Shown here in pieces: positions 619-17,303 of a stretch of DNA of 61,572 nt (position 1 is its first letter; each line of letters begins with the position of its first letter). The notes below the pieces were generated by a model. The model worked only from the letters and a program-made list of their open reading frames with translations. It did not search any database and was not told where the DNA came from. This DNA comes from Candidatus Limnocylindrales bacterium (GTDB lineage: Bacteria; Moduliflexota; Moduliflexia; Moduliflexales; JAUQPW01): contig DATMBG010000033.1 in NCBI GenBank assembly GCA_035559535.1, positions 1-61,572 of the forward strand. Direction: 5' to 3'. The position numbers and the translations under genes are program-made.

Positions 619-634
619 CGCAATCATCATGCCA
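619..634 (-). promoter_or_regulatory. Candidate sigma-54 promoter for the CapA-like gene
   Basis: On the minus strand the sequence reads TGGCAT-GATGA-TTGCG, which keeps the invariant GG (-24) and GC (-12) ten bases apart. It points at the CapA-like remnant starting at 450. The three dyad sites at 757-922 lie upstream, at the distance expected for enhancer sites. Confidence 0.7.
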
Positions 635-756
635 AAACTTCAAAATATGAAGATCTCACTTTGAGGTTTAGAATTACGGTTTAAAGTCGAAGATTAAAGG
701 CATGCAAAATGAGTCGTTTAGTTTTTTAGCTTCAGCTTCTAAAAAGTTATGCCTTT

Positions 757-922
757 TGTCCAAAAATCTTGCGGGATCGGCCAAAATCTAATATCTATCC
801 CTTAGATTTATAAGAATATCGAATCATGTCAGAAATTAAGATGAAAATTTTCTGAAATCATTGTAAATTCAACAAGTGTAAAGTTTTTAATATCACATCA
901 GATAATGTTGGAAACTAGGACA
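757..922. promoter_or_regulatory. Enhancer cassette A: three TGTC-N9-GACA-like sites
   Basis: Three 17-bp dyads lie at 757-773 (TGTC-N9-TGCG), 827-843 (TGTC-N9-GATG) and 906-922 (TGTT-N9-GACA), with centres 70 and 79 bp apart. They sit between two divergent sigma-54-like promoters (619-634 minus and 1055-1070 plus). The sites are degenerate one by one, but the same three-site layout recurs in three other cassettes in this window. An enhancer-binding activator of sigma-54 is inferred to bind here. Confidence 0.6.
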
Positions 923-1054
923 AAAATTAATTTGCATAATTAACCAAAGAGATCCTTGGGATCATTCTTAAATGGTAAGAATTAAACCTTTTTTCTTGGC
1001 ACACTTCCAAAGTTTATTATATTTACCAACCAAACTTTTAAGATTGGGTGGCTT

Positions 1055-1070
1055 TGGCACGGCAATTGCG
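1055..1070 (+). promoter_or_regulatory. Candidate sigma-54 promoter upstream of the acidic small protein
   Basis: TGGCAC-GGCAA-TTGCG is a near-consensus sigma-54 -24/-12 element with GG and GC ten bases apart. The nearest enhancer-like dyad is centred about 140 bp upstream. The first convincing gene on this strand starts at 1521, so the leader would be about 440 nt. Confidence 0.8.
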
Positions 1071-1520
1071 AAGTTTCCTTTTTAAGGAATCGATAAGACT
1101 AATACCTAGTCCATTTAATTCTGGCAATTGAATCAATCCTTAAAGCTCCAGAGGAGCGTCCTGGTCTTATAGGTAGCTTCCGGTGAAAGCTTTCCAAGCC
1201 TCGGAGGGGCTGTTTTAAGCATTGGATATACAAGGCGCTAAGGCTAGAAAAAGAAAGAATCCTCGTTTATAATCGCCCTGCTGGGGCTTTTAGGGAAATT
1301 TTATCTAAATTAAATGGATTGTGTGCCTAAATGATTACCAACTTGAACGTGTGTGGTAGGAACACGGGCGTCTTCAGCCGCTATGGTTGTAATCGGATAA
1401 AGATTAGAGGAGAGCTTTGACCGGGTTACTTTTGTCCGGATAAGAAAAGATTTATTTATCAGAGGCTAACTACTGCTGGAAGAGGCAATTGATGGAGTAA
1501 CCTGGTTAAGGTTTTGTTAT
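1071..1520 (+). other. Long leader region without a recognisable gene
   Basis: About 450 bp separate the sigma-54-like promoter from the next gene. Only very short frames without supporting Shine-Dalgarno sequences are visible, and I recognise no structured RNA. It could be a long 5' leader or an unannotated small RNA. Confidence 0.35.
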
Positions 1521-1772
1521 ATGCCAAAGAAAAAGATAAAAGATTCAGATTTTGAAGAGTTGCTAGAAGCCTGTCGAGAAGTCATCTATACTTATCATGA
1601 AGCTGCAAGCCCCAGAGTATCCTCAAATTTCGAAGAGGCCCTTGCAGAGCTTGAAGAGATAGTGGGAAAATACGGTCCTATTCCCCTTCCAGAGGAAGAA
1701 GAAGAGGAAGAGTGGAGTGGAGAAGAAGAAGAGGAACAGGAATGGGGTGAGGAGGAAGAGTACGACAAGTAA
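1521..1772 (+). CDS. Small acidic protein, function unknown
   Basis: This 83-residue protein is not recognised. Residues 1-55 are predicted mainly helical and contain charged, amphipathic segments (DFEELLEACREV and EEALAELEEIVGKYG). The last 28 residues are almost entirely Glu with Trp, Gly and Asp, making the protein extremely acidic. There is no signal peptide or membrane segment. It is the first gene downstream of a sigma-54-like promoter that belongs to a cassette shared with stress-type genes, so a stress-related role is inferred only from context. It lies 100 bp before the phosphate transport operon on the same strand. A TAAGG sequence upstream is a weak ribosome binding site. Confidence 0.6.
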   Translation: MPKKKIKDSDFEELLEACREVIYTYHEAASPRVSSNFEEALAELEEIVGKYGPIPLPEEEEEEEWSGEEEEEQEWGEEEEYDK

Positions 1773-1871
1773 TCTTTGAGTTTAGAGATCGGAAAGCAAT
1801 TCATCTCTATTTAGATTTAGTATAAAATATAAAAATCTAGTGACAGAGGACAAGATGATAGAAGGGAGAAA

Positions 1872-4487
1872 ATGGGCGCCCTTACACACCTAAGAAAAAC
1901 AAAAAAGAGCGTTATCCTGGCTAATAAAATTTCTACCACGATCATTACGGCGGGAGGTATTCTGGTGATTGTAGCTGTATCAGGGATTTTGCTTTTCCTG
2001 GTGATGGTTGTGATTCCGCTCTTTCAAGGAGCAAAAGTAACTTCTTTTACCTCCTATAAGCTTCCTTTAAAAGAGGTGGACCCACTCTTTGCCGAGGTGG
2101 ATGAATACCATTCCCTGGGAATCGTTCTATCCAGGAAGGGAATCCTCACCGCTTTTCATGCTGCTACTGGAGAGAAAATATTTGAAAAGGAGTTGATAAC
2201 TTCCGGGGCCGAAGTAACAGCGTTTTCCCGGACGTTGCGAGGTGGTTATACAGCCCTGGGACTGACCACTGGAGAGATCTCCTTGGGAAATCTCTCTTTT
2301 AAATCCTTGTTTCTCGAAGAAGAGAAAATTCCAGGGAGCCTCAAAAATCTAAATATCGGGGCACCTGTTATTTTCGAGAAAGGGGTTCTGCAGAGAGTCT
2401 CAGAAAGTTTATACCGAAAGATTGAAGTAAATATAGACTTTGCTTCACCCCTCAGAATAGGAGCAGGTGAGATTCCAGTGGTTTTAATAGATTATAAGCC
2501 TCTGGAAGACCAAAATGAAGCTATTGTGGGACTTAAGGCCGATGGTCAGTTACTCCTCAACAAGATTAAGAGGAAAAAGGACCTCCTCACGGGTAAAGTA
2601 ACGACGAGTTTGGATACATGGGAAATTCCTCACGAGTTTCCTCTAACCGGATCAACTCTTCCCAACAAACTTCTGTTGAACTCCTATGGGGATCAACTCT
2701 ATCTGGTTTGGAAGGATGGGACGCTCCATCGGTATAATCTTCGGGATCTTAAAAATCCCACCGTTGCTGAAAAAATAAACGTCGTTCAACCAGGGGTCGT
2801 GGGCAATGAACAACGAACACTCTCCCAGTTAAGCTTCATGATCGGAGACCAATCCTTAATCTCTGCAGATTCCTCTGGAAATGTCATAGCCTGGTTTCGG
2901 ATAGAAAGAGGCTGGAATGCCCGGGGAAGTGATGGATACGAACTTGTTCCAGCCCATAGCTTGGAAAAGCATCGAAGCGCAATATCCGTCCTGGCCATAT
3001 CGCCCCGAGATAAGAGCCTGGTTACCGCCGCACTGGGAGGGGAAATCTTTCTCCGCCACATGACTTCAGAAAGGGTTCTTATCCGGTTGGACCTCCCTTC
3101 TAAAGAAGAAATTATTACTCTCCAACTCACTCCCAAAGCAGATGGTATCTTTGCTGTAGATAAATCGCTGACAGCTTATATGTGGAAGATACACAATCCT
3201 CATCCAGAGATATCTTTAAAGACTATCTTCGGTAGGGTTTGGTATGAAGGGTATCCAGAGCCCACTTATACCTGGCAATCTTCCGGTGGTACAGACGATT
3301 TTGAGCCGAAGCTCAGTTTAATTCCCTTGATTTTTGGTACTTTTAAGGCAACCCTTTATTCCTTGTTATTTGCTATACCTGTTGCTATTTTGGCTGCAAT
3401 TTATACCTCTGAGTTTCTGGATAAAAAGCTTAAAGCTTTCTTAAAACCTGGGATCGAAATGATGGCCTTTTTACCCAGTGTCATTTTAGGCTTCATTGCT
3501 GCACTGATTTTGGCCCCCTTTGTTGAAAACTGGGTTTTATCGGTGATATTTGCCTTTGGAGTGACCCCTCTGATCCTCCTCTTGTTAGGTTATATCTGGC
3601 AACTTCTACCGAAAAGAATCACGCTCAGGCTCTCGGGTGTACGTCAACTTGTTAGTATTGCAGCAATTATGATTCTATGGATTGTTTTTTGCTTGACGGA
3701 CGATATAGGTTTACTTGTGGAGGATAAGGTTTTTAATGGAGATTTCAAAGCCTGGTTAGACGGGAAGACCGGAACCGGGACCCCCCTCTGGTTTGCGGTG
3801 TTTTTTCCATTTTCATTGCTCCTCACTTTCCTGACTCAGAAAAAGTATCTAGATCCGGTCATCCGGGAAAAAATATCTTATGCAAATCAGTTTACCATGG
3901 GTTTGATGGAGATTACCAAAGCACTCTCTGTTTTGATAGGATCAGTTCTTTTAAGTTATTGGGCAGGATGGTTTTTAACTGGGTTAGGTTTTGATGCCCG
4001 GGGTGAATTGGTGGGGACTTATGTGCAAAGAAATACCCTGATTGTGGGATTTGCCATGGGATTTGCTGTTATTCCCCTCATCTATACCCTTACCGAGGAT
4101 GCTTTATCCTCTGTTCCTGAGTCTTTACGTGCGGCCTCGTTAGCCTGTGGGGCTACACAATGGCAAACCACCACACGGATTGTTATACCTGCTGCGGCCA
4201 GTGGTATCTTCTCTGCTGTGATGGTTGGCTTAGGAAGAGCGGTTGGTGAGACAATGATTGTTGTGATGGCAGCCGGAAATACACCGATTCTGGATCTTAA
4301 TATTTTTAACGGATTTCGTGCATTGTCCGCTAATATTGCCATAGAGCTACCCGAAGCTGTTAAAGACAGTACGCTTTACCGGATGCTCTTCCTTGCGGCA
4401 CTTCTACTTTTTGGGATAACTTTTATCATCAATACGATAGCTGAGGTTGTCCGGATCAGATTTAGAAGTAAAACTTCTCAACTCTAA
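1872..4487 (+). CDS. pstC: Phosphate ABC transporter permease PstC, long form
   Basis: This is an inner-membrane permease subunit of the high-affinity phosphate ABC transporter. It has 871 residues, far longer than the roughly 320 of E. coli PstC. Residues 18-45 form one membrane helix. Residues 55-470 form a large extracytoplasmic domain with WD40-like repeats (for example SADSSGNVIAWFRIE and AISPRDKSLVTAALGGEIF), an arrangement also known in Pseudomonas-type PstC. The membrane-spanning MetI-like domain follows from about 490, with the ABC-coupling EAA loop at LRAASLACGATQWQTTTRI. It heads the operon pstC-pstA-pstB-phoU. No PstS binding protein is present in the window. The ATG start follows GAAGGGAG. 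Confidence 0.92.
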   Translation: MGALTHLRKTKKSVILANKISTTIITAGGILVIVAVSGILLFLVMVVIPLFQGAKVTSFTSYKLPLKEVDPLFAEVDEYHSLGIVLSRKGILTAFHAATGEKIFEKELITSGAEVTAFSRTLRGGYTALGLTTGEISLGNLSFKSLFLEEEKIPGSLKNLNIGAPVIFEKGVLQRVSESLYRKIEVNIDFASPLRIGAGEIPVVLIDYKPLEDQNEAIVGLKADGQLLLNKIKRKKDLLTGKVTTSLDTWEIPHEFPLTGSTLPNKLLLNSYGDQLYLVWKDGTLHRYNLRDLKNPTVAEKINVVQPGVVGNEQRTLSQLSFMIGDQSLISADSSGNVIAWFRIERGWNARGSDGYELVPAHSLEKHRSAISVLAISPRDKSLVTAALGGEIFLRHMTSERVLIRLDLPSKEEIITLQLTPKADGIFAVDKSLTAYMWKIHNPHPEISLKTIFGRVWYEGYPEPTYTWQSSGGTDDFEPKLSLIPLIFGTFKATLYSLLFAIPVAILAAIYTSEFLDKKLKAFLKPGIEMMAFLPSVILGFIAALILAPFVENWVLSVIFAFGVTPLILLLLGYIWQLLPKRITLRLSGVRQLVSIAAIMILWIVFCLTDDIGLLVEDKVFNGDFKAWLDGKTGTGTPLWFAVFFPFSLLLTFLTQKKYLDPVIREKISYANQFTMGLMEITKALSVLIGSVLLSYWAGWFLTGLGFDARGELVGTYVQRNTLIVGFAMGFAVIPLIYTLTEDALSSVPESLRAASLACGATQWQTTTRIVIPAAASGIFSAVMVGLGRAVGETMIVVMAAGNTPILDLNIFNGFRALSANIAIELPEAVKDSTLYRMLFLAALLLFGITFIINTIAEVVRIRFRSKTSQL

Positions 4488-4519
4488 TCGGCTATCAACC
4501 GCAGCTTTTCGGTCATCAA

Positions 4520-6265
4520 TTGTTAAAAGCTGATAGTCTGAGAGCCGGGAAATTGAAGAAAAGGAGAACTTCGAGATTTATTACACGGGGAGAACCTATA
4601 ATTTGGTTGACCGGAGGAGCCCTGGCTCTTGCTACCTTAATGATTCTCGGGTTACTTTTCCTGGTTTTTTATCAGGGAATCTTAACCTTTTGGCCCAAAC
4701 AGCTTGTCAGGATCATCGATCGACAGGGAAGGAGGTATCTGGGAGAAGTCTCTCGGCGAGAGCGCTATTATCCCGGTCAAGGGGATAGACGTATGGAAGT
4801 GCAGGAGTATGGAGGTAGAGAAGGATCCCCCACACTCCCACGTCCCCACTCCTCAAATGGGGTCACCGAAAGAATCCTGGTTAAGATCGGAAATTACGAT
4901 CTTTATGGCGAGGATTTCAGATGGATTCCCCTTTTTGAGATTCAGAAAAAAGAATATCCTCCGGAAGCTGTGACTTTAGAACGATTAGAATGGGGACCTT
5001 TCTACGGGTTTATGGAAGAGGTTCGGATCGATGGAAATACAGTAGCCAGAGGCCCTGAGGAGAGCTGGAAAAAGTTTAAAGAATTTCATAGCCCGGCGAG
5101 GGCACGATACTTAAAGATTAGGTCTATAGAAAAGAAAGATCTGGGAGAAGTCAACTTCCAATTAGAACGACTGAGATTAAACCTCAGAAGAGCTGAGTTA
5201 GCCTATGGAAGGAATACGGATCCTTATAATCAGATAAAAGCCCAAATCGAGAAGGAAGAAAGCCGATGGACAACCCGATATAACCAGCTTAGTGAAGAGA
5301 TTGCACAACTTCGTAGGGAAAATAACCGCTACCAGATTTTACTTAAAGAGGTAGGGGGAAGGACTAAGGAAATCAAGGTATTTGAGGTAATTCGCGCCTA
5401 TCATCCTAATCAGATGGATTTTATGGAAAAGCTTAGAGTCTATCTCTCTCGCTGGGGGGAGTTTTTAAGCAAAGAACCTCGCGAGGCTAACACAGAAGGC
5501 GGAGTCTTCCCGGCCATCTTTGGGACTTTCATGATGACAATCCTTATGTCTCTGGCTGTGGTTCCTTTTGGAGTGATCGCAGCTTTATACTTAAAGGAAT
5601 ACGCTAAGCAGGGACTTTTAATATCCAATGTGCGGATTGCAGTTAATAATCTGGCTGGTGTACCTAGCATCGTTTTTGGTGTCTTTGGCCTCGGCTTTTT
5701 CTGTTATAGAATTGGAGGGACCATCGATTCCATTTTTTTTCCTGAAAAGCTGCCGGTGCCTACCTTCGGTACCGGCGGGATTCTTTGGGCTTCTCTGACC
5801 TTAGCTTTACTTACAATACCTGTGGTTATTGTATCAACGGAAGAAGCCCTGGCAGCTGTTCCTCAAAGCGTACGAGAGGGTTCCTATGCCTGTGGTGCTA
5901 CTAAGTGGCAGACCATCCGAAGGATTGTGCTCCCTCAGGCAACTCCTGGTATCTTGACAGGGTTGATCCTCGCCATGGCCCGGGGAGCTGGCGAGGTCGC
6001 CCCCCTCATGATCACAGGTGTGGTTAAACTCGCTCCAGAACTCCCCTTAGACCGACATTTCCCTTATTTTCACCTGGAGAGAAGTTTTATGCATCTGGGA
6101 TTTCACATTTACGATGTGGGATTTCAATCTAGAAACTCGGAGGCCGGTAAACCTATGGTATTCACGACGACGCTTCTCCTGATTCTGCTGATTGTTACCT
6201 TGAATGCTGCGGCCATTTATCTGCGGAATAGATTGAGGAAAAAGTATCAAATAGGACATTTCTGA
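4520..6265 (+). CDS. pstA: Phosphate ABC transporter permease PstA, long form
   Basis: This is the second membrane permease of the phosphate importer, 581 residues, resembling the long PstA proteins with an N-terminal DUF3333-type domain. A membrane helix lies near residues 30-52, followed by an extracytoplasmic region with coiled-coil segments around residues 215-285. The MetI-like permease part begins near 330, with the EAA loop VREGSYACGATKWQTIRRI. The TTG start at 4520 has no clear ribosome binding site, and a second in-frame TTG lies at 4553, so the start is uncertain. Residues about 91-115 look like an in-frame insertion of a GTATGG-type dispersed repeat. The gene follows pstC by 32 bp. 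Confidence 0.9.
   Translation: MLKADSLRAGKLKKRRTSRFITRGEPIIWLTGGALALATLMILGLLFLVFYQGILTFWPKQLVRIIDRQGRRYLGEVSRRERYYPGQGDRRMEVQEYGGREGSPTLPRPHSSNGVTERILVKIGNYDLYGEDFRWIPLFEIQKKEYPPEAVTLERLEWGPFYGFMEEVRIDGNTVARGPEESWKKFKEFHSPARARYLKIRSIEKKDLGEVNFQLERLRLNLRRAELAYGRNTDPYNQIKAQIEKEESRWTTRYNQLSEEIAQLRRENNRYQILLKEVGGRTKEIKVFEVIRAYHPNQMDFMEKLRVYLSRWGEFLSKEPREANTEGGVFPAIFGTFMMTILMSLAVVPFGVIAALYLKEYAKQGLLISNVRIAVNNLAGVPSIVFGVFGLGFFCYRIGGTIDSIFFPEKLPVPTFGTGGILWASLTLALLTIPVVIVSTEEALAAVPQSVREGSYACGATKWQTIRRIVLPQATPGILTGLILAMARGAGEVAPLMITGVVKLAPELPLDRHFPYFHLERSFMHLGFHIYDVGFQSRNSEAGKPMVFTTTLLLILLIVTLNAAAIYLRNRLRKKYQIGHF
4788..4866. repeat. GTATGG-type repeat apparently inserted in frame within pstA
   Basis: The left half carries GTATGGAAG and GAGTATGGAGG, and the right half carries CCCCACACTCCC and CCCCACTCC, giving an imperfect inverted arrangement. 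It resembles the intergenic repeats at 29241-29290 and 34144-34223. It encodes a Gly/Pro/Ser-rich stretch that I do not expect at this place in PstA, just before the conserved K-I-G-N-x-D-L-Y-G segment. Confidence 0.5.
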
Positions 6266-8083: not shown

Positions 8084-8521
8084 CTAGGTAGGATCCGATG
8101 GCCAAAGTGCACATAGCTCTTTAGGCAAGAGACTCTGGATATCCTTCAGTTCTCCCTCAGAGATTCGTTTGGTGAGTACCTTAAAAACTGCGCGGGCTAT
8201 CTGCTCGGGATTAACATTGGGGTCGTGCTTAAAGTATTCATGAATGTGATCCAGAAACTCCTCTTTGTGTTGGTCCTTGAAAGGTTTTCCTTTAAGATTC
8301 CAACCCTCATAGTAAAAACCACGAATCAACATGGGTAACTGAGCCCCCAGTTGAACGGCTTCCTCCACGGTCAGGCGGTCACGTAACGTGTGCAAAGTAG
8401 CACGCAGTGCCAGGTAGGCTTTGTGTTGATCCTCCCATCTTAATTCTTTCATAATATCCATCAGCCAGGTGTGTGTCTTCTGGACTGTAGTATCAAAGGC
8501 CTCTAATCCTGTTTCAGGCAT
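8084..8521 (-). CDS. DUF2267-family protein, paralogue 1
   Basis: This is a 145-residue DUF2267-type protein, a helical family of unknown function often found among stress and low-oxygen genes. The family hallmark is the central L-R-D-R-L-T-V-E-E-A-V-Q-L-G-A-Q-L-P segment, followed by VRGFYYEGW-like sequence (here IRGFYYEGW) and an H-x-E-E-F-L motif. The start at 8521 is chosen over an upstream in-frame ATG at 8551 because GGAGGAG lies just before it and the length then equals its paralogue at 9386. The two paralogues are divergent and very similar. A sigma-54-like promoter at 8568-8583 points at this gene and leaves a leader of about 36 nt. Confidence 0.88.
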   Translation of the reverse strand: MPETGLEAFDTTVQKTHTWLMDIMKELRWEDQHKAYLALRATLHTLRDRLTVEEAVQLGAQLPMLIRGFYYEGWNLKGKPFKDQHKEEFLDHIHEYFKHDPNVNPEQIARAVFKVLTKRISEGELKDIQSLLPKELCALWPSDPT

Positions 8522-8567
8522 ACTCTTCTCCTCCTTTCGATAGAATCTCATCTCTTAAACAAACCCT

Positions 8568-8583
8568 CGCAATCAATATGCCA
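8568..8583 (-). promoter_or_regulatory. Candidate sigma-54 promoter of DUF2267 paralogue 1
   Basis: On the minus strand TGGCAT-ATTGA-TTGCG fits the -24/-12 pattern with GG-N10-GC. It ends 47 bp before the ATG at 8521. An enhancer-like dyad at 8787-8803 is centred about 210 bp upstream. Confidence 0.8.
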
Positions 8584-8786: not shown

Positions 8787-8925
8787 TGTCTTAATTCCTG
8801 AAACCGTTCGAGTCTCCCATAAAAAGGGGTTTTTATCAAAAAGGTAAAATTTTTGTCTTAATCTCTGACATATCTCTTTATCTTGTAAATAGGAGATTTT
8901 GTTAGTATTGTAAAATTTTATGACA
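8787..8925. promoter_or_regulatory. Enhancer cassette B: three TGTC-N9-GACA-like sites
   Basis: The dyads lie at 8787-8803 (TGTC-N9-GAAA), 8854-8870 (perfect TGTC-N9-GACA) and 8909-8925 (TGTA-N9-GACA), with centres 67 and 55 bp apart. Read on the minus strand, the order and internal bases match cassettes D and E, including a TTACAATACTAACAAA stretch close to the TTACAATACCAACAAA of cassette E. The cassette lies between the divergent promoters of the two DUF2267 genes. The rest of 8584-9191 holds no convincing gene. Confidence 0.7.
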
Positions 8926-9191: not shown

Positions 9192-9207
9192 TGGCATAAC
9201 CATTGCC
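9192..9207 (+). promoter_or_regulatory. Candidate sigma-54 promoter of DUF2267 paralogue 2
   Basis: TGGCAT-AACCA-TTGCC fits the sigma-54 pattern with GG-N10-GC. It lies 179 bp before the ATG at 9386. The leader contains a 17-codon frame (9268-9321, starting MPYGYFPP) that could be a leader peptide, although this is weak. Confidence 0.75.
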
Positions 9208-9385: not shown

Positions 9386-9823
9386 ATGGCTATGACCGGA
9401 TTAGGAGTTTTTGACAGTACAATTCAGAAGACTCATATCTGGCTCAATGATATCATGGAGGAGTTGGGCTGGAAGGACCGACAGAGGGCTTATCAGGCGT
9501 TACGTGTTACTTTACATGCACTCCGTGACCGTCTGACCGTGGAAGAGGCTGTCCAACTGGGAGCTCAATTACCTATGTTGGTTCGTGGCTTCTATTATGA
9601 GGGTTGGAATCTTAAAGGAAGACCTTTTAAGGAACGACATAAAGAGGAGTTCCTGGCTCATATTCGTAGTTATTTCAAAGATGACCCTGAGGTGGATCCT
9701 GAACGGGTCGTTCGTGCGATCTTCAAGGTACTCACCAAGCGGATCCCCGAAGGGGAAATTAAGGATATCAAACATCTCTTACCTGTGGAGTTACGAGAAC
9801 TCTGGCCCACAGAACCTACTTAA
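9386..9823 (+). CDS. DUF2267-family protein, paralogue 2
   Basis: At 145 residues this is a close copy of the divergent gene at 8084-8521. It shares T-I-Q-K-T-H-x-W-L, L-R-D-R-L-T-V-E-E-A-V-Q-L-G-A-Q-L-P and R-G-F-Y-Y-E-G-W-N-L-K-G. Function is unknown. The strong ribosome binding site AAGGAGGTG precedes the ATG. It is followed after about 350 bp by hsp20. Head-to-head duplicated DUF2267 genes around one shared enhancer cassette suggest coordinated induction. Confidence 0.88.
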   Translation: MAMTGLGVFDSTIQKTHIWLNDIMEELGWKDRQRAYQALRVTLHALRDRLTVEEAVQLGAQLPMLVRGFYYEGWNLKGRPFKERHKEEFLAHIRSYFKDDPEVDPERVVRAIFKVLTKRIPEGEIKDIKHLLPVELRELWPTEPT

Positions 9824-9926: not shown

Positions 9927-9942
9927 TGGCATAGTTATTGCC
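9927..9942 (+). promoter_or_regulatory. Candidate sigma-54 promoter of hsp20
   Basis: TGGCAT-AGTTA-TTGCC fits the -24/-12 pattern and resembles the promoter at 9192. It is 235 bp before the Hsp20 start codon. I find no clear TGTC-N9-GACA dyad in the 100 bp between it and the upstream gene, so any enhancer would lie further upstream. Confidence 0.65.
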
Positions 9943-10176: not shown

Positions 10177-10659
10177 ATGGCCCTTGAAAAATGGAGTCCT
10201 TTTACTTCTCTAGAGCGATGGGAAGAGAGATGGGATCCCTTTAAATGGATTTCCCAGGTACAACGAGAAATAAACCGATTATTTGAGGAGACTTTCCCAG
10301 AGCGTGAGTTAGAACCTATCTCTCTGAAAAGATGGTATCCGAAGTTGGACATGGTTGAAACGAAAGACGAGATAATTGTTCGGGCAGATCTTCCCGGTGT
10401 GAAACAATCCGATATAGACGTATCGGTCAGTAATGGCAATCTGGTGATTCGAGGAGAGCGAAAAGAAGAGAAAGAGATCAAAGAAGAGAATTACTATCGG
10501 CGAGAGCGGGAGTATGGTGCCTTCAGGAGGACTATCCCACTTCCCAGTGGAGTTAACGCCGAACAAATTAAAGCCACCTATCAAAACGGGGTTTTGGAAG
10601 TTAAGTTTCCAAAGCCAGAGGAAGCGAAGGCAAAACAGGTCAAGATCGAAGTAAAGTAG
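10177..10659 (+). CDS. Hsp20/alpha-crystallin small heat shock protein
   Basis: This is an ATP-independent holdase chaperone of 160 residues. The alpha-crystallin domain spans about residues 50-150, with the characteristic V-R-A-D-L-P-G-V-K stretch, the G-N-L-V-I-R-G-E-R strand and the A-x-Y-x-N-G-V-L-E-V motif before a short basic C-terminus. The N-terminal region begins MALEKWSPFTSLERWEE, typical of bacterial class A Hsp20. AGAAGGAGG precedes the ATG. It sits downstream of a sigma-54-like promoter, unlike the sigma-32 or HrcA control common for such genes. The gene for a thiamine-binding-like protein follows after a strong hairpin. Confidence 0.93.
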   Translation: MALEKWSPFTSLERWEERWDPFKWISQVQREINRLFEETFPERELEPISLKRWYPKLDMVETKDEIIVRADLPGVKQSDIDVSVSNGNLVIRGERKEEKEIKEENYYRREREYGAFRRTIPLPSGVNAEQIKATYQNGVLEVKFPKPEEAKAKQVKIEVK

Positions 10660-10763: not shown

Positions 10764-11090
10764 ATGATTGTAGAGTTAAGTATTATCCCCGTAGGAAACC
10801 TGGAAGGGGCCAGTATAAGCGGTCCTTTAGCCGAAGTCTTAAAGATCATAGATGAAAGTGGGTTAAAGTATCAAGTTACAGCCAGCGGAACGATTATTGA
10901 AGGTACCTGGCAGAAAGTATTTCCTGTCATCCAGAAATGTCATGAAGCGGTGAAGCATCGGGCAGGGCGGGCTATTACCCATATATCTATCGATGATCGG
11001 GAAGGGAAAAGGGAAACCATGGAAGAGATGGTGGAATCGGTCGAGGAGAAGGTTGGCAAAGAACTGAGAACCTGCATTCACCATGGATGA
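10764..11090 (+). CDS. MTH1187-family thiamine-binding-like protein
   Basis: At 108 residues this matches the MTH1187/YkoF-type family (formerly DUF77), small ferredoxin-like proteins that bind thiamine-related ligands. Supporting features are the start V-E-L-S-I-I-P-V-G, the segment L-K-Y-Q-V-T-A-S-G-T-I-I-E-G, and the A-I-T-H-I-S-I-D-D-R-E-G-K strand near residue 73. The protein is cytoplasmic, with no signal. GGGGGGTTAT precedes the ATG. It follows hsp20 on the same strand beyond a hairpin, so it may be partly co-transcribed. Confidence 0.85.
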   Translation: MIVELSIIPVGNLEGASISGPLAEVLKIIDESGLKYQVTASGTIIEGTWQKVFPVIQKCHEAVKHRAGRAITHISIDDREGKRETMEEMVESVEEKVGKELRTCIHHG

Positions 11091-11412: not shown

Positions 11413-12072
11413 ATGCCTTTTCAAAACCGAGAACAAGCCGCCCGTTTGCTGGCCAAAAAATTGATCAACTACAAGGGTCAAAATCCTTTGGTGTTAGCAA
11501 TTCCACGAGGTGCTGTTCCCATGGCTAAGATTATTGCTGATATCTTAGAGGGCGAGTTAGACGTAGTGCTGGTCCGTAAGCTGAGGGCACCTGGTTACCC
11601 TGAATTAGCCATCGGCTCGGTAGATGAAGCCGGTCATATCTATTTAGCAGAGCATATTGGCGACTTTGGGATCCAGGATGAGCATAATAAGTATATTGAA
11701 GGGGAAAAGAGAATCCAAATGGAGACCCTGCGCAGACGTCGTAATCTGTATACCCCGGTACGTCCTCCCATCAGCCCCGCCAATCGTATTGTGATCGTTG
11801 TGGACGATGGGATCGCCACCGGGTCTACCATGATTGCAGCATTACGTGCAGTACGGGCTAACAACCCGGCAAAGCTCATTGTTGCCACGGCCGTGGCACC
11901 CCTTGAAGCCTTACGGCGAATAGAGAAAGAGGCAGATGAGGTGGTATGCCTCGAGGTACCGCCCGTTTTTTTCGCCATAGGAGATTTTTTCGAGGATTTT
12001 TCACAGGTTTCCGATGAAGAAGTGGTAGCAATCTTACAGCAAAGTAATTCTAAGCATACATTGGAAGAATAG
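11413..12072 (+). CDS. Phosphoribosyltransferase-domain protein
   Basis: This is a type I phosphoribosyltransferase-fold protein of 219 residues. The PRPP-binding loop is V-V-D-D-G-I-A-T-G-S-T-M near residues 135-146. The N-terminal part has V-L-A-I-P-R-G-A-V-P-M-A, a feature of the stand-alone family seen next to Hsp20, Usp and erythromycin-esterase genes. The substrate is not known. GGAGGTAAAG precedes the ATG. In this window it sits in an island that also holds an AMP/thymidine phosphorylase, so nucleotide salvage is possible. Confidence 0.82.
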   Translation: MPFQNREQAARLLAKKLINYKGQNPLVLAIPRGAVPMAKIIADILEGELDVVLVRKLRAPGYPELAIGSVDEAGHIYLAEHIGDFGIQDEHNKYIEGEKRIQMETLRRRRNLYTPVRPPISPANRIVIVVDDGIATGSTMIAALRAVRANNPAKLIVATAVAPLEALRRIEKEADEVVCLEVPPVFFAIGDFFEDFSQVSDEEVVAILQQSNSKHTLEE

Positions 12073-13089: not shown

Positions 13090-13178
13090 AGGCTTGACCT
13101 CCTTAGACTCTATTTTACCCTGATTGTTCCCAGGTACTGTTTTTCTTGGAGCTAGCTCCGACTCATCTCATAAAGCAC

Positions 13179-13757
13179 TCAAATCTTTTTCGTCCCTTCA
13201 ACCACATAATGGTAGGGATAAATTCCATGCTCGCGCAGATGTTCAAAGCCTGCAGCGTGTAAGGCTGCCCAAAGCGTTTCAAGAGAAACTCTTACTTCTA
13301 GGGGCGGTCCCATGGAAGTCTCAATCGGCTTCCAGTCGACCAGAAATAGAGAACCACCTGGTTTAAGAATTCGCCAGATTTCCCGCAAAAATGCATCAGG
13401 TGCTTCCAGCTCGTGGAAGAGGTTGATTGAATAGGCAACATCTACACAGGCTTCGGGTAAAGGGATTTCCCGCTCACCAGAATGCACTGCTAGGATATTT
13501 TTTAATCCTCTAGCCTGAGCTCTCCGTTCAAGTTCTTGCAGCATTTCAGGCAAAATATCAACGGCGTAGATCCTTCCTTCAGGACCAATGCGTTCGGCTA
13601 CCGGGAGCGTGAAATATCCTGACCCGCACCCAATATCCGCATAACTCATGCCCATTCGGGGTTGCAAGACTTCTAAGAAGGCTTCCACCCCTTGCCAACG
13701 GGCACGTTCAGAGTTATCAAGCTTTTCGATATTCTTAGGATCAAACTTGTGGGGCAT
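13179..13757 (-). CDS. Class I SAM-dependent methyltransferase
   Basis: This 192-residue methyltransferase has the SAM-binding motif I V-x-D-I-G-C-G-x-G-like sequence (Y-A-D-I-G-C-G-S-G-Y-F near residue 39), motif II Y-A-V-D-I-L and motif post-I at L-P-E-A-C-V-D-V-A-Y. The layout is that of UbiE/ArsM-like small-molecule methylases. The substrate cannot be named. AGGAGG precedes the ATG. It is on the same strand as the radical SAM gene, separated by about 90 bp. Confidence 0.85.
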   Translation of the reverse strand: MPHKFDPKNIEKLDNSERARWQGVEAFLEVLQPRMGMSYADIGCGSGYFTLPVAERIGPEGRIYAVDILPEMLQELERRAQARGLKNILAVHSGEREIPLPEACVDVAYSINLFHELEAPDAFLREIWRILKPGGSLFLVDWKPIETSMGPPLEVRVSLETLWAALHAAGFEHLREHGIYPYHYVVEGTKKI

Positions 13758-13810
13758 TATAAAAACCTCCTGACTTAATTTGTGGATTTATCAAGTGTTC
13801 CTGGCATTAA

Positions 13811-13867
13811 CGAAACCTTTTTGTCTTTCTGTTCCATCTCTATGAATTGACTTCGATGGATGAACTT
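13811..13867 (-). pseudogene. Remnant of a radical SAM gene 3' end
   Basis: On the minus strand 19 codons read K-F-I-H-R-S-Q-F-I-E-M-E-Q-K-D-K-K, aligning with K-L-I-N-R-G-Q-L-I-E-T-E-Y-K-G-K-K at the C-terminus of the protein encoded at 12148-13089. The surrounding bases are similar too. It appears to be a decayed tail from a duplicated copy. Confidence 0.5.
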
Positions 13868-13900
13868 TGGAGCTGAAAATGGGATGAATTTTTCGTTAAA

Positions 13901-14362
13901 CTAACGTCGTCTCCAACCAGCCCAAACCGGAAAACCCTTCTCATCCCGAAGCTTTAATACTTCCTCACCCTTTTTGACCTCAGCCGCAATGATAGCCGGT
14001 TTTCCTTCAAAGGTGATCCTCGAACCGGTAATCTCAACTTTGTCCCCGGGCTCAATCTTGGTATCCTGGTTCTCCAGGTACCAGCTCGGTCCTAAATGAA
14101 CCGCAATGGTCTCCTGATCCGTTTTCACTGTCAGATGGATGCCTTCAAACATCCCTTTCATAGGAGTAAATCTCTCCACACTGACCACCTCTCCACTAAG
14201 GGTTTCAACGGTTTTGGGGTCATACATCTTCCCATACGGGGTTCCTATCCCCCATCCCCCACCCCCTCTCCATTTTATGCCCCGTTGGGTGGCAAAAGTC
14301 TCTAGGGTAAGAAAAAGACTCATAAGGAAAATCATTATTACCATAGTCCCGACCTTTTTCAT
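13901..14362 (-). CDS. Secreted OB-fold-like protein
   Basis: This is a 153-residue exported protein with an N-terminal signal peptide (residues 1-24, ending F-A-T-Q). The mature part begins with a Gly/Trp-rich segment. It is followed by V-E-T-L-S-G-E-V-V-S-V-E-R, H-L-G-P-S-W-Y-L-E-N and K-I-E-P-G-D-K-V-E-I-T-G-S, a small beta-barrel pattern resembling periplasmic OB-fold proteins such as YgiW or NirD-like types. Function is unknown. AAGGAGGACC precedes the ATG. A candidate sigma-54 promoter lies about 110 bp upstream in the shared cassette D. Confidence 0.78.
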   Translation of the reverse strand: MKKVGTMVIMIFLMSLFLTLETFATQRGIKWRGGGGWGIGTPYGKMYDPKTVETLSGEVVSVERFTPMKGMFEGIHLTVKTDQETIAVHLGPSWYLENQDTKIEPGDKVEITGSRITFEGKPAIIAAEVKKGEEVLKLRDEKGFPVWAGWRRR

Positions 14363-14472
14363 GTGGTCCTCCTTTTTGGTTGTTTTTAACCCACCCCATT
14401 TCAGCTAACTTTATGGAAAGACTCCCCTGCTATCAGGTCAAACCACCCGGTGACCAGACATTGAAGGAATAA

Positions 14473-14488
14473 TGCAACCGATAGACCA
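14473..14488 (-). promoter_or_regulatory. Candidate sigma-54 promoter of the secreted OB-fold gene
   Basis: On the minus strand TGGTCT-ATCGG-TTGCA keeps GG-N10-GC. The bases after it (TTATTC) are shared with the candidate at 16947-16962 in the paralogous cassette E, which supports both. Confidence 0.5.
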
Positions 14489-14599
14489 GGATTCATAAAA
14501 ACATCGGAATCTTGTTGTAAGATAGAACTATACAGATGATTACCAATAGCAGACCAAAGGTAAGGGGACACTTAGGGGAGGGTACAGGATCATGCCAGC

Positions 14600-14755
14600 T
14601 ATCTTAAAATCTTATGGGATCAACAAAAGCCTGATAATTATGAGGTCTATAGAGTAGTGTCAGAGATAAAGACAAAGACCTGAAGATATCAAGAAAATTT
14701 TTAATATTTATAAAGGGTTCATAAGAAGTATCAGACAGCATCAGAAATTAAGACA
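14600..14755. promoter_or_regulatory. Enhancer cassette D: three TGTC-N9-GACA-like sites
   Basis: The sites lie at 14600-14616 (TATC-N9-TATG), 14658-14674 (perfect TGTC-N9-GACA) and 14739-14755 (CATC-N9-GACA), with centres 58 and 81 bp apart. The outer sites lie 112-120 bp from the divergent promoters at 14473 and 14859. Long stretches resemble cassette E, for example TAAAATCTTA and AAGCCTGATA against TAAAATCTTA and AGGCCTGATA. Confidence 0.72.
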
Positions 14756-14858
14756 AAAAATAGAGGCAAGAATTCAAAATCCGACTGATGGAGTTTTCCT
14801 GTCAATTTTAAAAAATGTGAGAATTTAGATGGCAGTAGAATTTCATGTTTTGAAGCTC

Positions 14859-14874
14859 TGGCACAATAATTGCT
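14859..14874 (+). promoter_or_regulatory. Sigma-54 promoter of the small coiled-coil gene
   Basis: TGGCAC-AATAA-TTGCT is a near-perfect -24/-12 element. The next gene starts at 15011, 137 bp downstream, with AAGGAGG before its ATG. Confidence 0.85.
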
Positions 14875-15010
14875 GGATTTCTTTGTCAAAGTCCCTTACC
14901 ATAATCTAAACAATCAGGAGGTTGTGTAACGATTAGTTATTCATAGCCTAATTTATAGAACCCGCCCTATATCTGACTACATGGGTGGAAATTAGACAAG
15001 GAGGTTTATT

Positions 15011-15245
15011 ATGCCGTACTGTTGTGGTTATTACCATCACCATTTACATCCCCCCCCACTGGCTCCGCTGGATCTGGCCCGAACCTTATCCACCGTACCC
15101 TGGACGTTACCCTTTATCAGCCCGTGAGGATTACGTCCGGAGTTTAGAAGAGGAGCGTGATATACTGGAGCAGCGGTTGCGACGCCTGGAGCGAGAACTG
15201 GAGGAACTGCGTAAGGGGGGCCGATCTCAACAGGGACAAGTCTGA
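15011..15245 (+). CDS. Small His/Pro/Tyr-rich coiled-coil protein, frameshifted at a C8 tract
   Basis: The ATG at 15011 has an ideal AAGGAGG ribosome binding site, and its frame starts MPYCCGYYHHHLHPPP but soon reaches a stop. The neighbouring frame, which has no good start, continues with H-W-L-R-W-I-W-P-E-P-Y-P-P-Y-P and then a charged coiled coil (about 33 residues, E/R/L-rich) to the stop at 15243-15245. Removing one C from the run of eight at 15050-15057 joins the two into one protein of about 77 residues. Either the assembly has one extra C or the gene is truly frameshifted. Function is unknown. It is driven by a strong sigma-54-like promoter. Confidence 0.65.
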
Positions 15246-15659
15246 ATACTGAAATTTGTAGGAGTGAGCCCAAGGATCACTCCTACTTACGACCTCATTT
15301 CTGAATGGCGCCTGGACGGCAGGAAGTTGTTAATGGATGGTGTGGTATAATGGCACAAGCTTCAGGATCCAGCGGGTCATGTACGCCCCAGCCCGGGATG
15401 ACCCGGCCACTCCAGGTATCATGACTGCCCACGCCCGCCAATCCAGCGTTCATGCATAGGCTACACCCCTCAGCTTCAGTCCTGCTAAGCGATCCCATTG
15501 CCTGAGTCTTTCGGTGGTCCCGGCCACTGTCAATCCTTCTGGACGCATACCCACCTGCTTCAGGGTGTTGTCAATAGAGAGACTATGTCAGGGGGTTGTA
15601 TTCATAAGTAATTTGTTAAATGGGTTGAACAGCATCAAAAATTAGAATAAACCATAAGA
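15246..15659. other. Intergenic region, GC-rich patch and a degenerate enhancer-like site
   Basis: Bases 15290-15560 are visibly more GC-rich than the surrounding intergenic DNA and hold only broken frames, so this may be a gene remnant that I cannot identify. At 15633-15649 a CATC-N9-AATA sequence resembles the third site of cassette D, and its left flank is similar too, suggesting a decayed fifth cassette. Confidence 0.3.
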
Positions 15660-16631
15660 TCACGAGGTCTCGTGGTGTGGACAATGTAACAGTATGGGTA
15701 CAGAAGTACCCCGTAACACCTTATCAGCTACACTACCTATCAACAGACGTGTTAAGCCACTGTAACCATGCGTTTCCATGGCAATCAGATCTATTCCATG
15801 TTTACTCGACTCTTCGAGTATGATAGGGGATGGATTCTTACCGATAACGACTCTTGTCTGGATTCGTAGGGACACACTATCGCGCGCCCTTGCCTGCGCT
15901 TGCAATCGTTCCGCTAGACCAGTGAGATAGGCCTCTGCTTCCCTCTGCGGCTGATCTAGAAGTTGTTGTTCTAACTGAATTGGATATTGGGTGGCTGAGT
16001 AATCAATAGGGGTCATTGGCTCAATAACCCGGAGCAATGTATAGTCAGCTTCCATTAACTTACCCAGTTCTATCGCGTACTCTAACACCTGCTCAGCGAG
16101 GGTTGAGCCATCTAGGGGAATCAATATATGCTGGAAGATTTGCTCCTGGCTGAGATTCGGCCCAAATTCTTCTGTTTCCCGTGATCGAACCAACAAAATA
16201 GGGATTGATGCATGTCGTACAAGCCAATCTGTGACACTGCCGAGCCAGAAACGATTCAAAGCACCATATCCATGTGTGGTCATCACTATCAGATCTATAC
16301 CTGCAGTCGCTATGAAGTTATTAAGCGTCTCAGCAACCTGTCCTGGCTGTCCGTCAAGCAAGGAAGCAGTAACCAGAGTTGTCATATCGGTCGCCAGGTT
16401 TTCAACTACCTTGCTTAGGTATGCCTGCTCATATTCTTTAAGTCGTTTATCCAATGCCTCATCGACGGTAACCTTACTACTTATATAATCTACCTGCTTC
16501 CCTTCGATGGGTACATGCACAAGGACCAATCGAAGTGTTGCGTTCGCCCGACGCGCAATACTTCGCGCCAGAGGTAGGGCGTGTTCCGCAAAGGCCGAAC
16601 CATCGAGGGGGGTAAGAATAGATCGATACAT
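15660..16631 (-). CDS. Tandem-domain universal stress protein
   Basis: This is a UspA-family protein with two consecutive domains, 323 residues from the ATG at 16631. Each domain starts with an I-L-x-P-L-D-G-S strand (residues 5-12 and near 160) and ends with the nucleotide-binding T-H-G-Y-x10-G-S-V segment. The upstream in-frame ATG at 16682 is rejected because the family begins at MYRSILTPLDGS and GAGGG lies before it. UspA proteins support survival under stress. Two-domain forms are common near Hsp20 and similar genes. A weak sigma-54-like element lies about 320 bp upstream beyond a repeat. Confidence 0.9.
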   Translation of the reverse strand: MYRSILTPLDGSAFAEHALPLARSIARRANATLRLVLVHVPIEGKQVDYISSKVTVDEALDKRLKEYEQAYLSKVVENLATDMTTLVTASLLDGQPGQVAETLNNFIATAGIDLIVMTTHGYGALNRFWLGSVTDWLVRHASIPILLVRSRETEEFGPNLSQEQIFQHILIPLDGSTLAEQVLEYAIELGKLMEADYTLLRVIEPMTPIDYSATQYPIQLEQQLLDQPQREAEAYLTGLAERLQAQARARDSVSLRIQTRVVIGKNPSPIILEESSKHGIDLIAMETHGYSGLTRLLIGSVADKVLRGTSVPILLHCPHHETS

Positions 16632-16758
16632 ACTACTTTCCCTCAGGTTAGGAAGTCCGTCTTTCTGTTTTGACAATCCCAACCTGGGTTATGGATAAGT
16701 AACCTTTAGCACAACGGCCTTGATAATTTACTGATCCAAGTTTCAACAGCTACTTGAA

Positions 16759-16920
16759 CTTCGAATTTGTAACTGCTCACCCTCTCTCCCAACCCTTCTC
16801 CCACGCTGTGGGAGAGGGAAGTGGAATAGGATAGCAGATTGCTTCGTTATGCGCTCCCTCTCTCGAAGCCTCGGAAGAGGGAGTTCAGGGAGGTGAGGGC
16901 GAGCAATTACTCGAATTCTT
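16759..16920. repeat. MITE-like palindromic repeat
   Basis: The outer arms (around 16759-16800 and 16890-16920) are imperfect reverse complements built on TGCTCACCCTCTCTCCC and GGGAGGTGAGGGCGAGCA. Inside are two smaller hairpins, TCTCCCAC/GTGGGAGA and CTCCCTCT/AGAGGGAG. No coding capacity is seen. It lies between the UspA start and its candidate promoter. Confidence 0.6.
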
Positions 16921-16946
16921 ACAGAGCTATTTATCCTGAAGAATAA

Positions 16947-16962
16947 TGCAATCCCTGAACCG
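16947..16962 (-). promoter_or_regulatory. Weak sigma-54-like element in cassette E
   Basis: On the minus strand CGGTTC-AGGGA-TTGCA has GG-N10-GC but a poor -24 box. Its position and downstream bases match the element at 14473-14488 in the paralogous cassette D. It would transcribe towards the UspA gene. Confidence 0.3.
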
Positions 16963-17086
16963 AGGTCAATAAAAACTTTGAAACCCCTATCTTAGATATA
17001 GGATTCCACAGATGATTACAGATAGGAAATCAAAGTAGGGAAGACAATCTACTAAACCCCTTTGGAAGATATGGAGCCCCACGAGT

Positions 17087-17220
17087 TGTCCTAAAATCTT
17101 ACAATACCAACAAAGGCCTGATATTCATAGAATCTATAAAAGAATGTCAAAAAAAAAGACAAAATTTAAGGATATCAAAAATTCCAATAAAAGATATAAG
17201 TTTTATCAAAAATTAAGATA
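17087..17220. promoter_or_regulatory. Enhancer cassette E: three TGTC-N9-GACA-like sites
   Basis: The sites are 17087-17103 (TGTC-N9-TACA), 17145-17161 (perfect TGTC-A9-GACA) and 17204-17220 (TATC-N9-GATA), with centres 58 and 59 bp apart. The last site is 76 bp from the promoter at 17288. The cassette resembles cassette D over most of its length. Confidence 0.72.
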
Positions 17221-17287
17221 AAACAAGGATAAAAGCTTAAAAGCAGGATAGATCAAGGTCCTATATCATTCAAACCAATAACCGGTA

Positions 17288-17303
17288 TGGTATAGCTATT
17301 GCT
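17288..17303 (+). promoter_or_regulatory. Candidate sigma-54 promoter of the one-TM protein
   Basis: TGGTAT-AGCTA-TTGCT keeps GG-N10-GC and lies 59 bp before the ATG at 17362, giving a normal leader of about 45 nt. Confidence 0.7.

What the first reader, a model, noticed from the sequence alone, without database searches (positions are those of the whole stretch)
619..17303. Four duplicated three-site enhancer cassettes (TGTC-N9-GACA) with divergent sigma-54 promoters
Between pairs of opposed GG-N10-GC promoters at 619/1055, 8568/9192, 14473/14859 and 16947/17288, the same triple of 17-bp dyads recurs. The perfect copies are at 8854, 14658 and 17145. Centre spacings are 70/79, 67/55, 58/81 and 58/59 bp. 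In three cassettes the outer sites lie about 75-140 bp from the promoters, and in cassette B they are farther away (over 200 bp). This is what an enhancer-binding activator of sigma-54 needs. The dyad differs from the NifA site (TGT-N10-ACA) and I know of no described activator with exactly this site. The downstream genes (CapA-like, acidic protein, two DUF2267, OB-fold, coiled-coil, UspA, one-TM) would form a stress regulon. That one activator controls all of them is inference.
Basis: partly seen in the sequence, partly recalled or inferred. Interest (0 to 1): 0.88.

Follow-up and report, generated by a model that had tools for sequence, protein, structure and literature searches.

The report
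Paired-site enhancers of low-oxygen genes
The repeated DNA boxes are real, and they belong to at least 21 switches across the genome that probably let one family of activator proteins turn on stress and low-oxygen respiration genes in an uncultured bacterium.

Summary
The four cassettes exist where stated, with the stated spacings. As worded (TGTC-N9-GACA) the dyad is not enriched. Read at 17 bp it is two related sites, A (TGTCTTAATTTCTGACA) and B (TGTAAGATTTTAAGACA). I count 21 cassettes in the parts examined. A and B usually lie 57-58 bp apart, strong half-sites outward, with a sigma-54 element beyond (20 of 21, against 7-18% at random positions; 14 of the 20 at 104-139 bp). The window's four are three-site, two-way versions. 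Likely activators are two paralogous NtrC-type regulators (74% identical) on contig C37. One operon has its own cassette, and some Acidobacteriota orthologues (about 50% identical) have a near-identical dyad before their operon. The kinase beside the second has a FixL-type haem-PAS domain. Facing genes include Usp, DUF2267, a ribosome-hibernation-type protein, clade II NosZ, cytochrome oxidase and a PQQ dehydrogenase. Best reading: a sigma-54 low-oxygen/energy-stress regulon that works like Myxococcus NmpR but with other sites and geometry. Binding, activation and signal are inferred.

The parts
619..634 (-). sigma-54 promoter TGGCATGATGATTGCG, toward the CapA-like gene
   Evidence: identical element in the sister species cassette
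757..773 (-). site B (CGCAAGATTTTTGGACA on - strand), cassette 1
   Evidence: held-out score 14.8
827..843 (-). site A (CATCTTAATTTCTGACA), cassette 1
   Evidence: held-out score 20.7
906..922 (-). third site, type A (TGTCCTAGTTTCCAACA), cassette 1
   Evidence: held-out score 15.9
1055..1070 (+). sigma-54 promoter TGGCACGGCAATTGCG
8568..8583 (-). sigma-54 promoter TGGCATATTGATTGCG, toward DUF2267 gene 8084-8551
8787..8803 (+). third site, type A (TGTCTTAATTCCTGAAA), cassette 2
   Evidence: held-out score 19.1
8854..8870 (+). site A (TGTCTTAATCTCTGACA), cassette 2
   Evidence: held-out score 25.6
8909..8925 (+). site B (TGTAAAATTTTATGACA), cassette 2
   Evidence: held-out score 20.8
9192..9207 (+). 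sigma-54 promoter TGGCATAACCATTGCC, toward DUF2267 gene 9386-9823
14473..14488 (-). sigma-54 promoter TGGTCTATCGGTTGCA, toward ORF 13901-14362
14600..14616 (-). site B (CATAAGATTTTAAGATA), cassette 3
   Evidence: held-out score 16.5
14658..14674 (-). site A (TGTCTTTATCTCTGACA), cassette 3
   Evidence: held-out score 20.1
14739..14755 (-). third site, type A (TGTCTTAATTTCTGATG), cassette 3
   Evidence: held-out score 20.2
14859..14874 (+). sigma-54 promoter TGGCACAATAATTGCT (7 of 7)
16947..16962 (-). weak sigma-54-like element CGGTTCAGGGATTGCA (4 of 7), toward the Usp gene 15660-16682
17087..17103 (-). site B (TGTAAGATTTTAGGACA), cassette 4
   Evidence: best held-out score in window, 28.4
17145..17161 (-). 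site A (TGTCTTTTTTTTTGACA), cassette 4
   Evidence: held-out score 14.3
17204..17220 (-). third site, type A (TATCTTAATTTTTGATA), cassette 4
   Evidence: held-out score 13.0
17288..17303 (+). sigma-54 promoter TGGTATAGCTATTGCT, toward ORF 17362-17658
124..450 (-). CapA-like ORF (PGA_cap, matches only the first 97 of 255 profile positions)
1521..1772 (+). small acidic ORF (83 aa), no Pfam match, before a phosphate-transport-like cluster (pst/phoU names given by eye, not searched)
8084..8551 (-). DUF2267 protein
   Evidence: PF10025
9386..9823 (+). DUF2267 protein (paralogue)
   Evidence: PF10025
9927..9942 (+). sigma-54-like promoter TGGCATAGTTATTGCC before Hsp20; no A/B cluster listed near it; identical in sister species. 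Membership of the regulon unsure
10177..10659 (+). Hsp20, followed by thiamine-binding MTH1187-type (10764-11090) and phosphoribosyltransferase (11413-12072). Membership of the regulon unsure
13901..14362 (-). secreted-looking ORF (by eye), no Pfam family; weak MamS match below cut-off
14985..15245 (+). small coiled-coil-like ORF (by eye), no Pfam match
15660..16682 (-). double-domain universal stress protein
   Evidence: PF00582
17362..17658 (+). one-TM ORF (by eye), no Pfam match

Best explanation
The cassettes are enhancers of one sigma-54 regulon. A phosphorylated NtrC-family response regulator dimer binds each 17-bp dyad. Dimers on A and B (mostly 57-58 bp apart, strong half-sites outward) assemble into the active AAA+ ring. 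The ring contacts sigma-54 RNA polymerase at a -24/-12 promoter, usually 104-139 bp beyond B, by looping and opens it. In the window a third A-type site on the other side lets one cassette serve two divergent promoters. The activators are most likely the paralogous regulators P0001 (C37:17732-19111) and P0002 (C37:173809-175185). P0001 and its kinase sit behind their own cassette (autoregulation). The kinase beside P0002 carries a FixL-type haem-PAS domain, so falling oxygen is the likeliest signal. Output: low-oxygen respiration plus protective or resting-state proteins. SHOWN by sequence: sites, spacing, promoter elements, conservation, gene content, activator operon behind a cassette. INFERRED: binding, activation, that both paralogues bind, and the oxygen signal.
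For: Geometry: over 415 kb, A-to-B pairs scoring 24 or more occur at 58 bp (10), 57 (6), 56 (1), 55 (2), 70 (1, cassette 1) and 117 (1, third site of cassette 4), and at no other spacing from 20 to 120; 20 block-shuffled copies give 0. 20 of 21 cassettes have an outward sigma-54 element scoring 5 or more of 7, against 6.6% of random and 18% of AT-rich positions; median distance 129.5 bp, 14 of 20 at 104-139. One sigma-54 gene match. Against the sister species: sites 589/612, promoters 328/336, other intergenic 6823/7612, leaving out two rows and one cassette without a match (all rows in the Full report section). Activator: P0001's kinase operon has sigma-54 element C37:20472 and pair 20608/20666. 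Recognition helix SRD[ST]LYRK is in only these 2 of 28 activators extracted. The two paralogues, their sister-species copies and four Acidobacteriota proteins form a clade, support 100/99. A near-identical dyad lies just before the orthologous kinase-activator operon in L088 and L090, 2 of the 5 closest Acidobacteriota loci, and in G137 and G184. Signal: P0003 residues 265-386 match FixL haem PAS at E 3.2e-35; His320 and Arg340 align with FixL His and Arg (roles recalled). Facing genes: Usp, DUF2267, S30AE, NosZ, CoxB, PQQ-ADH.
Against: No binding or transcript data. The other 26 of 28 activators extracted were set aside only by location and recognition helix. P0002's operon has no cassette of its own. 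P0001's kinase PAS shows no FixL-type His stretch by eye (not searched against structures). 3 of 5 closest Acidobacteriota loci lack a site scoring 15 or more, as do 9 of 12 places. By eye I saw no sigma-54 element between dyad and kinase gene in L088 or L089, and only a poor one (4 of 7) in L090. The Hsp20 promoter (9927) has no nearby site. The 16947 element is weak. C37:22255 has only a B site, C41:3461 only two A sites; a lone B-like site at C37:37727, kept in the sister species, has no sigma-54 element and was not counted. Paired sites about 5.5 helical turns apart are unusual for NtrC-type activators (my own argument).
Confidence: 0.7

Rival explanations
1. The sites are the enhancers of a sigma-54 regulon, but the signal is not oxygen. 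P0001/P0002 respond to energy, nutrient, redox or nitrogen-oxide stress, and the respiratory genes are there because respiration is retuned in any growth arrest.
For: Many facing genes are general stress or resting proteins (Usp, DUF2267, S30AE hibernation-type protein). The kinase in P0001's own operon shows no FixL-type motif by eye. Window cassette 1 faces a phosphate-transport-like cluster (by eye).
Against: FixL-type PAS with the haem-ligand His and distal Arg kept in P0003 and its sister-species copy; NosZ, cytochrome oxidase and a radical SAM protein related to haem enzymes face cassettes, a hemerythrin-domain gene lies beside one.
Confidence: 0.35
2. The dyads bind another, non-EBP regulator (repressor or FNR-like dimer) that merely co-occurs with sigma-54 promoters, and a different activator drives them.
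For: Sites in cassette 2 lie over 200 bp from the promoters; binding by P0001/P0002 is untested; the Acidobacteriota dyads lack clear sigma-54 elements beside them (by eye).
Against: Regular upstream placement and paired spacing; activator operon behind its own cassette; near-identical dyad before orthologous activator operons in another phylum.
Confidence: 0.12
3. Chance: AT-rich intergenic DNA that by luck holds dyads and GG-N10-GC words.
For: The dyad as worded is at or below background; AT-rich positions have a sigma-54-like word 18% of the time.
Against: Held-out matrices, spacing histogram with 0 pairs in 20 shuffles, cross-species conservation.
Confidence: 0.01

Closest known systems
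NmpRSTU / NmpR regulon of Myxococcus xanthus (PMC11841059; abstract, passages and section 16 read)
   Same: NtrC-type response regulator, sigma-54 promoters, two sites per promoter, haem-dependent kinase and a hybrid kinase upstream, sites before its own operons, targets with a universal stress protein, a terminal oxidase, HemN and a hemerythrin; low-oxygen induced.
   Different: Its site is GCGCA-N5-TGCGC with a preferred 14-15 nt spacing; here it is a 17-bp TGTC..GACA dyad with a 40-41 nt gap. Its regulon is seven promoters and 23 genes; here 21 cassettes, several divergent. Orthology was not tested (no NmpR sequence in hand).
FixL/FixJ oxygen two-component system
   Same: FixL-type haem PAS domain in P0003.
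   Different: Regulator here is a sigma-54 NtrC-type activator, not a FixJ-type regulator (FixJ type recalled); P0003 is a hybrid kinase with several PAS domains and a receiver and is far below the NCBIfam FixL cut-off (285 vs 850 bits).
NtrC / NifA enhancer sites (recalled)
   Same: About 17-bp dyads upstream of -24/-12 promoters; same AAA+ and Fis-type HTH domains.
   Different: Half-site TGTC rather than TGCACC; two site types mostly 57-58 bp apart; of the 25 NCBIfam families shown for each, P0001/P0002 reach no cut-off (best AtoC 362/379 vs 714).
Low-oxygen-activated (lxa) locus of Burkholderia cenocepacia (PMC9104464, passages) and the DosR dormancy regulon (recalled)
   Same: Clusters of universal stress proteins with stress and metabolic genes, induced by low oxygen.
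   Different: Other organisms and, as far as I recall, other regulators; not compared by sequence here.

Membership tests
sigma-54 (RpoN) regulon | -24/-12 element TGGCAY-N5-TTGC upstream of target genes | tested here: met
   20 of 21 cassettes, against 6.6-18% of random positions
sigma-54 (RpoN) regulon | rpoN gene in the genome | tested here: met
   One PF04552 match, E 4.7e-65, C22:124107-124583
sigma-54 (RpoN) regulon | transcription depends on sigma-54 and starts about 12 bp after the -12 box | not testable with these tools
   needs RNA data
NtrC-family enhancer-binding response regulator (P0001, P0002) | receiver + sigma-54 AAA+ + Fis-type HTH | tested here: met
   PF00072, PF00158, PF02954 all over cut-off in both
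NtrC-family enhancer-binding response regulator (P0001, P0002) | binds the A/B dyads | not testable with these tools
   indirect only: own cassette, orthologous dyads in some genomes, helix SRDSLYRK
NmpR type | site GCGCA-N5-TGCGC, about 14-15 nt spacing | tested here: not met
   sites are TGTC..GACA type with 40-41 nt gap
NmpR type | haem-PAS kinase feeding an NtrC-type regulator | tested here: inconclusive
   FixL-type PAS present in adjacent hybrid kinase P0003; haem binding and phosphotransfer untested
FixL haem-PAS sensor domain | PAS fold with proximal His and distal Arg | tested here: met
   E 3.2e-35 to FixL 1d06; His320, Arg340 aligned; sister species keeps both. By sequence only
FixL/FixJ system | whole kinase matches FixL; FixJ-type regulator | tested here: not met
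   285 vs 850 bits cut-off; regulator is NtrC-type
NifA regulon | NifA equivalog and TGT-N10-ACA sites | tested here: not met
   NifA 295-303 bits vs 528.85 cut-off; 17-bp N9 dyad

The most novel reading that the evidence does not exclude
A previously undescribed enhancer class. Two non-identical dyads in fixed inverted arrangement 57-58 bp (about 5.5 helical turns) apart bring activator dimers together by bending or wrapping the DNA between them. Serving one or two promoters, this runs a regulon of at least 21 cassettes that joins dormancy-type protection (Usp, DUF2267, hibernation factor) to low-oxygen respiration, including clade II nitrous oxide reductase. The activator-dyad pairing is old enough to be shared with Acidobacteriota.
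Probability: 0.35. Interest if true: 0.75.

Novelty: new variant of a known kind. Interest (0 to 1): 0.62.

Why it matters
It would give an uncultured lineage a nearly complete, testable regulatory circuit read from sequence alone: sensor, regulator, site, spacing and targets. It would put a clade II nosZ under sigma-54 control, and offer DUF2267 and other unknown proteins a context (low-oxygen survival). The rigid 57-58 bp inverted pair is an unusual, directly testable enhancer design.

Tried and rejected
Plain TGTC-N9-GACA as the motif: rejected, not enriched.

A regulon limited to the window: rejected, since 17 of the 21 cassettes lie outside it. Further B-like candidates on C10 gave no A/B pair when fetched. 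The whole genome was searched only with mismatch-limited patterns, so weaker cassettes may be missing.

Acidobacteriota regulons: six genomes (five Acidobacteriota, one Nitrospira MAG) searched with TGTCAGGAAATAAGACA had 0, 1, 0, 1, 1 and 2 places at two mismatches or fewer, so a regulon there is not shown. L111 (Nitrospira MAG, score 21.6) is unexplained; its genome shows no clear excess over control (11 against 9).

Deeper relatives: 57 of 59 genomes searched have no site at one mismatch or less; one other species of the genus is held, so conservation rests on a close pair.

Literature: two spellings of the dyad as a string found 0 papers. Other searches gave NmpR as the closest. The D. vulgaris sigma-54 regulome main text (PMC4641369) holds no TGTC or GACA string (one passage seen); its figures were not seen. 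PMC12316311 (passages) reports Usp enrichment under sigma-54 in Planctomycetia. All other papers were seen in listings only.

Tree: 22 of this genome's 28 extracted activators were used (L009, L010, L015, L019, L022 and L028 left out by me before building); the L089 row was a wrong reading frame (very long branch) and is ignored.

Conservation: rows dropped from the main count are w3, c41_5407 and c46 (reasons and full totals in the Full report section).
Full report
WHAT IS THERE. The wording TGTC-N9-GACA is too loose: it is at background in the window and below a reversed control in the genome. Listing the genome's perfect dyads showed that several share a longer sequence, TGTCAGAAATTAAGACA. 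That 17-mer, at up to three mismatches, gave 44 places against 24 for the control, and all 15 places at two or fewer mismatches lay on four contigs: C33 (the window's), C37, C41 and C19.

TWO SITE TYPES AND A FIXED GEOMETRY. Reading around those places gave a repeated unit: site A, TGTCTTAATTTCTGACA, then mostly 57-58 bp (start to start) on, site B, TGTAAGATTTTAAGACA, then a sigma-54 -24/-12 element. The better-kept half-sites (TGTCTTAA of A, TTAAGACA of B) face outward, so the pair is itself an inverted arrangement. Over 415 kb of this genome, A-to-B pairs scoring at least 24 occur at 58 bp (10), 57 (6), 56 (1), 55 (2), 70 (1, window cassette 1) and 117 (1, the third site of window cassette 4), and nowhere else between 20 and 120 bp; 20 block-shuffled copies give none. 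In 170 kb of the same contigs fetched without regard to sites there was none even at score 20. The matrices there include window sites, and sites were first collected as clusters within 100 bp, which could inflate pairing but not pick out 57-58.

PROMOTERS. I count 21 cassettes: four in the window, eleven on C37 (22255 has only a B site; 41619 and 42020, back to back, are counted as two), three on C41 (3461 has two A sites and no B), and one each on C46, C43 and C19. A lone B-like site at C37:37727 without a sigma-54 element was not counted. In 20 of 21 an outward element with at least 5 of 7 scored positions lies 104-312 bp from the B site (for C41:3461 the outer A), median 129.5, 14 of the 20 at 104-139; random positions in the same stretches have one 6.6% of the time, AT-rich ones 18%.

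HELD-OUT TEST AND CONSERVATION. In the one other species held of the genus (G001), the cassettes recur with like spacings, e.g. 70/79, 55/68 and 58/60. Two G001 contig lengths (84978, 59769) equal those of MAG JZ-2.bins.100.201901, so I take them to be the same assembly. Sites are 589/612 identical, promoters 328/336, remaining intergenic bases 6823/7612; I left out two rows (w3, cut by a contig end; c41_5407, aligned to the wrong place) and c46, which had no match in the G001 stretches held then. With the two rows the totals are 665/697, 362/400 and 7271/8565. Of 59 genomes searched at one mismatch or less, only these two species have the site.

THE ACTIVATOR. The genome has 36 matches to the sigma-54 activator domain, 28 of them strong. 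Two, P0001 and P0002, are 74% identical, are receiver + AAA+ + Fis-type HTH proteins and share the recognition helix SRDSLYRK, found in no other of the 28 extracted. P0001 follows a PAS histidine kinase, and that operon has a sigma-54 element (C37:20472) and a pair (20608 B / 20666 A, 58 bp) in front of it. P0002 lies 1.6 kb from a cassette facing cytochrome oxidase genes. A tree of 56 activators joins P0001, P0002, their sister-species copies and four Acidobacteriota proteins (support 100/99). The Acidobacteriota kinases seen in L087, L090 and L091 share the H-box AGTAHHLNTP with P0001's kinase. In front of that kinase-activator operon lies TGTCAGGAAATAAGACA in L088 and TGTAAGGAAATAAGACA in L090; L089 has a degenerate TGCCCGGAAATCAGACA there (by eye), and L087 and L091 show nothing at score 15. 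Sites scoring 15 or more number 4 in the 1.27 Mb of loci L087-L164, two of them these. In a second sample, 9 of 247 genomes of that phylum had a close activator, at 12 places. The strong dyad sits before the kinase in 3 of 12 (G060, which is L088's genome, G137, G184); two others (G069, G179) have a different perfect TGTC-N9-GACA near the activator's 3' end; the remaining 7 show no perfect dyad within the short stretches held. This links activator and dyad across phyla in some genomes, not in every one. By eye no sigma-54 element was seen beside the dyad in L088 and L089 and a poor one (4 of 7) in L090.

THE SIGNAL. P0003, the hybrid kinase beside P0002, has several PAS domains; residues 265-386 match FixL haem PAS domains of known structure (best E 3.2e-35), with His320 and Arg340 in the places of FixL's haem-ligand His and oxygen-contact Arg (the roles of those residues are recalled). 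The sister species keeps both. P0001's kinase PAS shows no such stretch by eye. Oxygen is therefore the likeliest input but is unproven.

THE TARGETS. Genes or likely operons facing cassettes: universal stress proteins (window, C37 twice, C41, all by Pfam; C46 by eye), two DUF2267, a thiamine-binding-like protein with a hibernation-type S30AE + cold-shock protein, nicotinate phosphoribosyltransferase, an ABC transporter, a helix-hairpin-helix protein, a LonB-like protease (C19), pyruvate dehydrogenase E1, an amidohydrolase with a cytochrome c, a TIGR04053 radical SAM protein (over cut-off; haem b synthase is its next-best model, below cut-off), a TonB receptor (below cut-off as PqqU) with a PQQ alcohol dehydrogenase (over cut-off), a cytochrome-c-like ORF (by eye) with Sec-dependent clade II NosZ (over cut-off), cytochrome c oxidase (CoxB over, CtaD below cut-off), a molybdopterin enzyme with a haem/cytochrome subunit (Pfam over cut-off; nearest NCBIfam model, type II DMSO-reductase family, below), a RACo-like protein, and the P0001 kinase-activator operon. 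C43 faces a Met-rich ORF without a Pfam match. Operon membership is inferred from gene order. Hsp20 and its followers have a conserved sigma-54-like promoter (9927) without a nearby site.

HOW IT MOST LIKELY WORKS. Low oxygen (or a linked stress) switches the kinases; P0001~P and/or P0002~P dimers fill A and B, join into a ring across the 57-58 bp, loop to sigma-54 polymerase and open the promoter. A third A-type site at the far side of the window's cassettes puts a dimer near the second, divergent promoter. Steps after 'sites exist in this geometry' are inference from how NtrC-type activators work (established knowledge) and from gene content.

COMPARISON. The nearest described system I found is NmpRSTU of Myxococcus xanthus (PMC11841059): a haem-dependent kinase, hybrid kinase and NtrC-type regulator controlling a usp gene, a terminal oxidase, hemN and a hemerythrin from paired sites. 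It works alike, but the DNA site and spacing differ, so this is not filed as NmpR. No paper in the held library contains the dyad string in the two spellings searched; most subscription papers are not held.

Noticed in passing
window 9927-9942: Conserved sigma-54-like promoter before Hsp20 without an A/B site near it; the nearest cassette is about 1 kb upstream.
   Followed up: partly
window 17433-17449: A lone A-like site (TGTCTTAATTGCTGCCG, held-out score 15.3) inside the one-TM ORF 17362-17658; the same 17-mer occurs in the sister species (G001:C118:2623).
   Followed up: no
window 124-450: The CapA-like ORF matches only the first 97 of 255 profile positions before a stop, near the contig start; shortened gene or sequence error.
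   Followed up: no
G001:C15 (L201-L203): In the sister species the matches of cassettes C37:2775, C19:5460, C41:3461, C41:11345 and window cassette 1 lie on one 51-kb contig, so much of the regulon is physically clustered.
   Followed up: partly
L201 9035-9208: Sister-species cassette with four sites (A, B, A, B; gaps 81, 19, 57); I did not identify a counterpart in this genome.
   Followed up: no
L275 300-316 and L273 1533-1549: Different perfect TGTC-N9-GACA dyads just past the 3' end of P0001-like activators in two genomes of the Acidobacteriota sample.
   Followed up: no
L111 12323-12339: Score-21.6 A site in a Nitrospira MAG, unexplained.
   Followed up: partly
window 18823-19695: Sigma-70-family factor gene (regions 1.2 to 4) shortly after the cassette-facing genes.
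   Followed up: no
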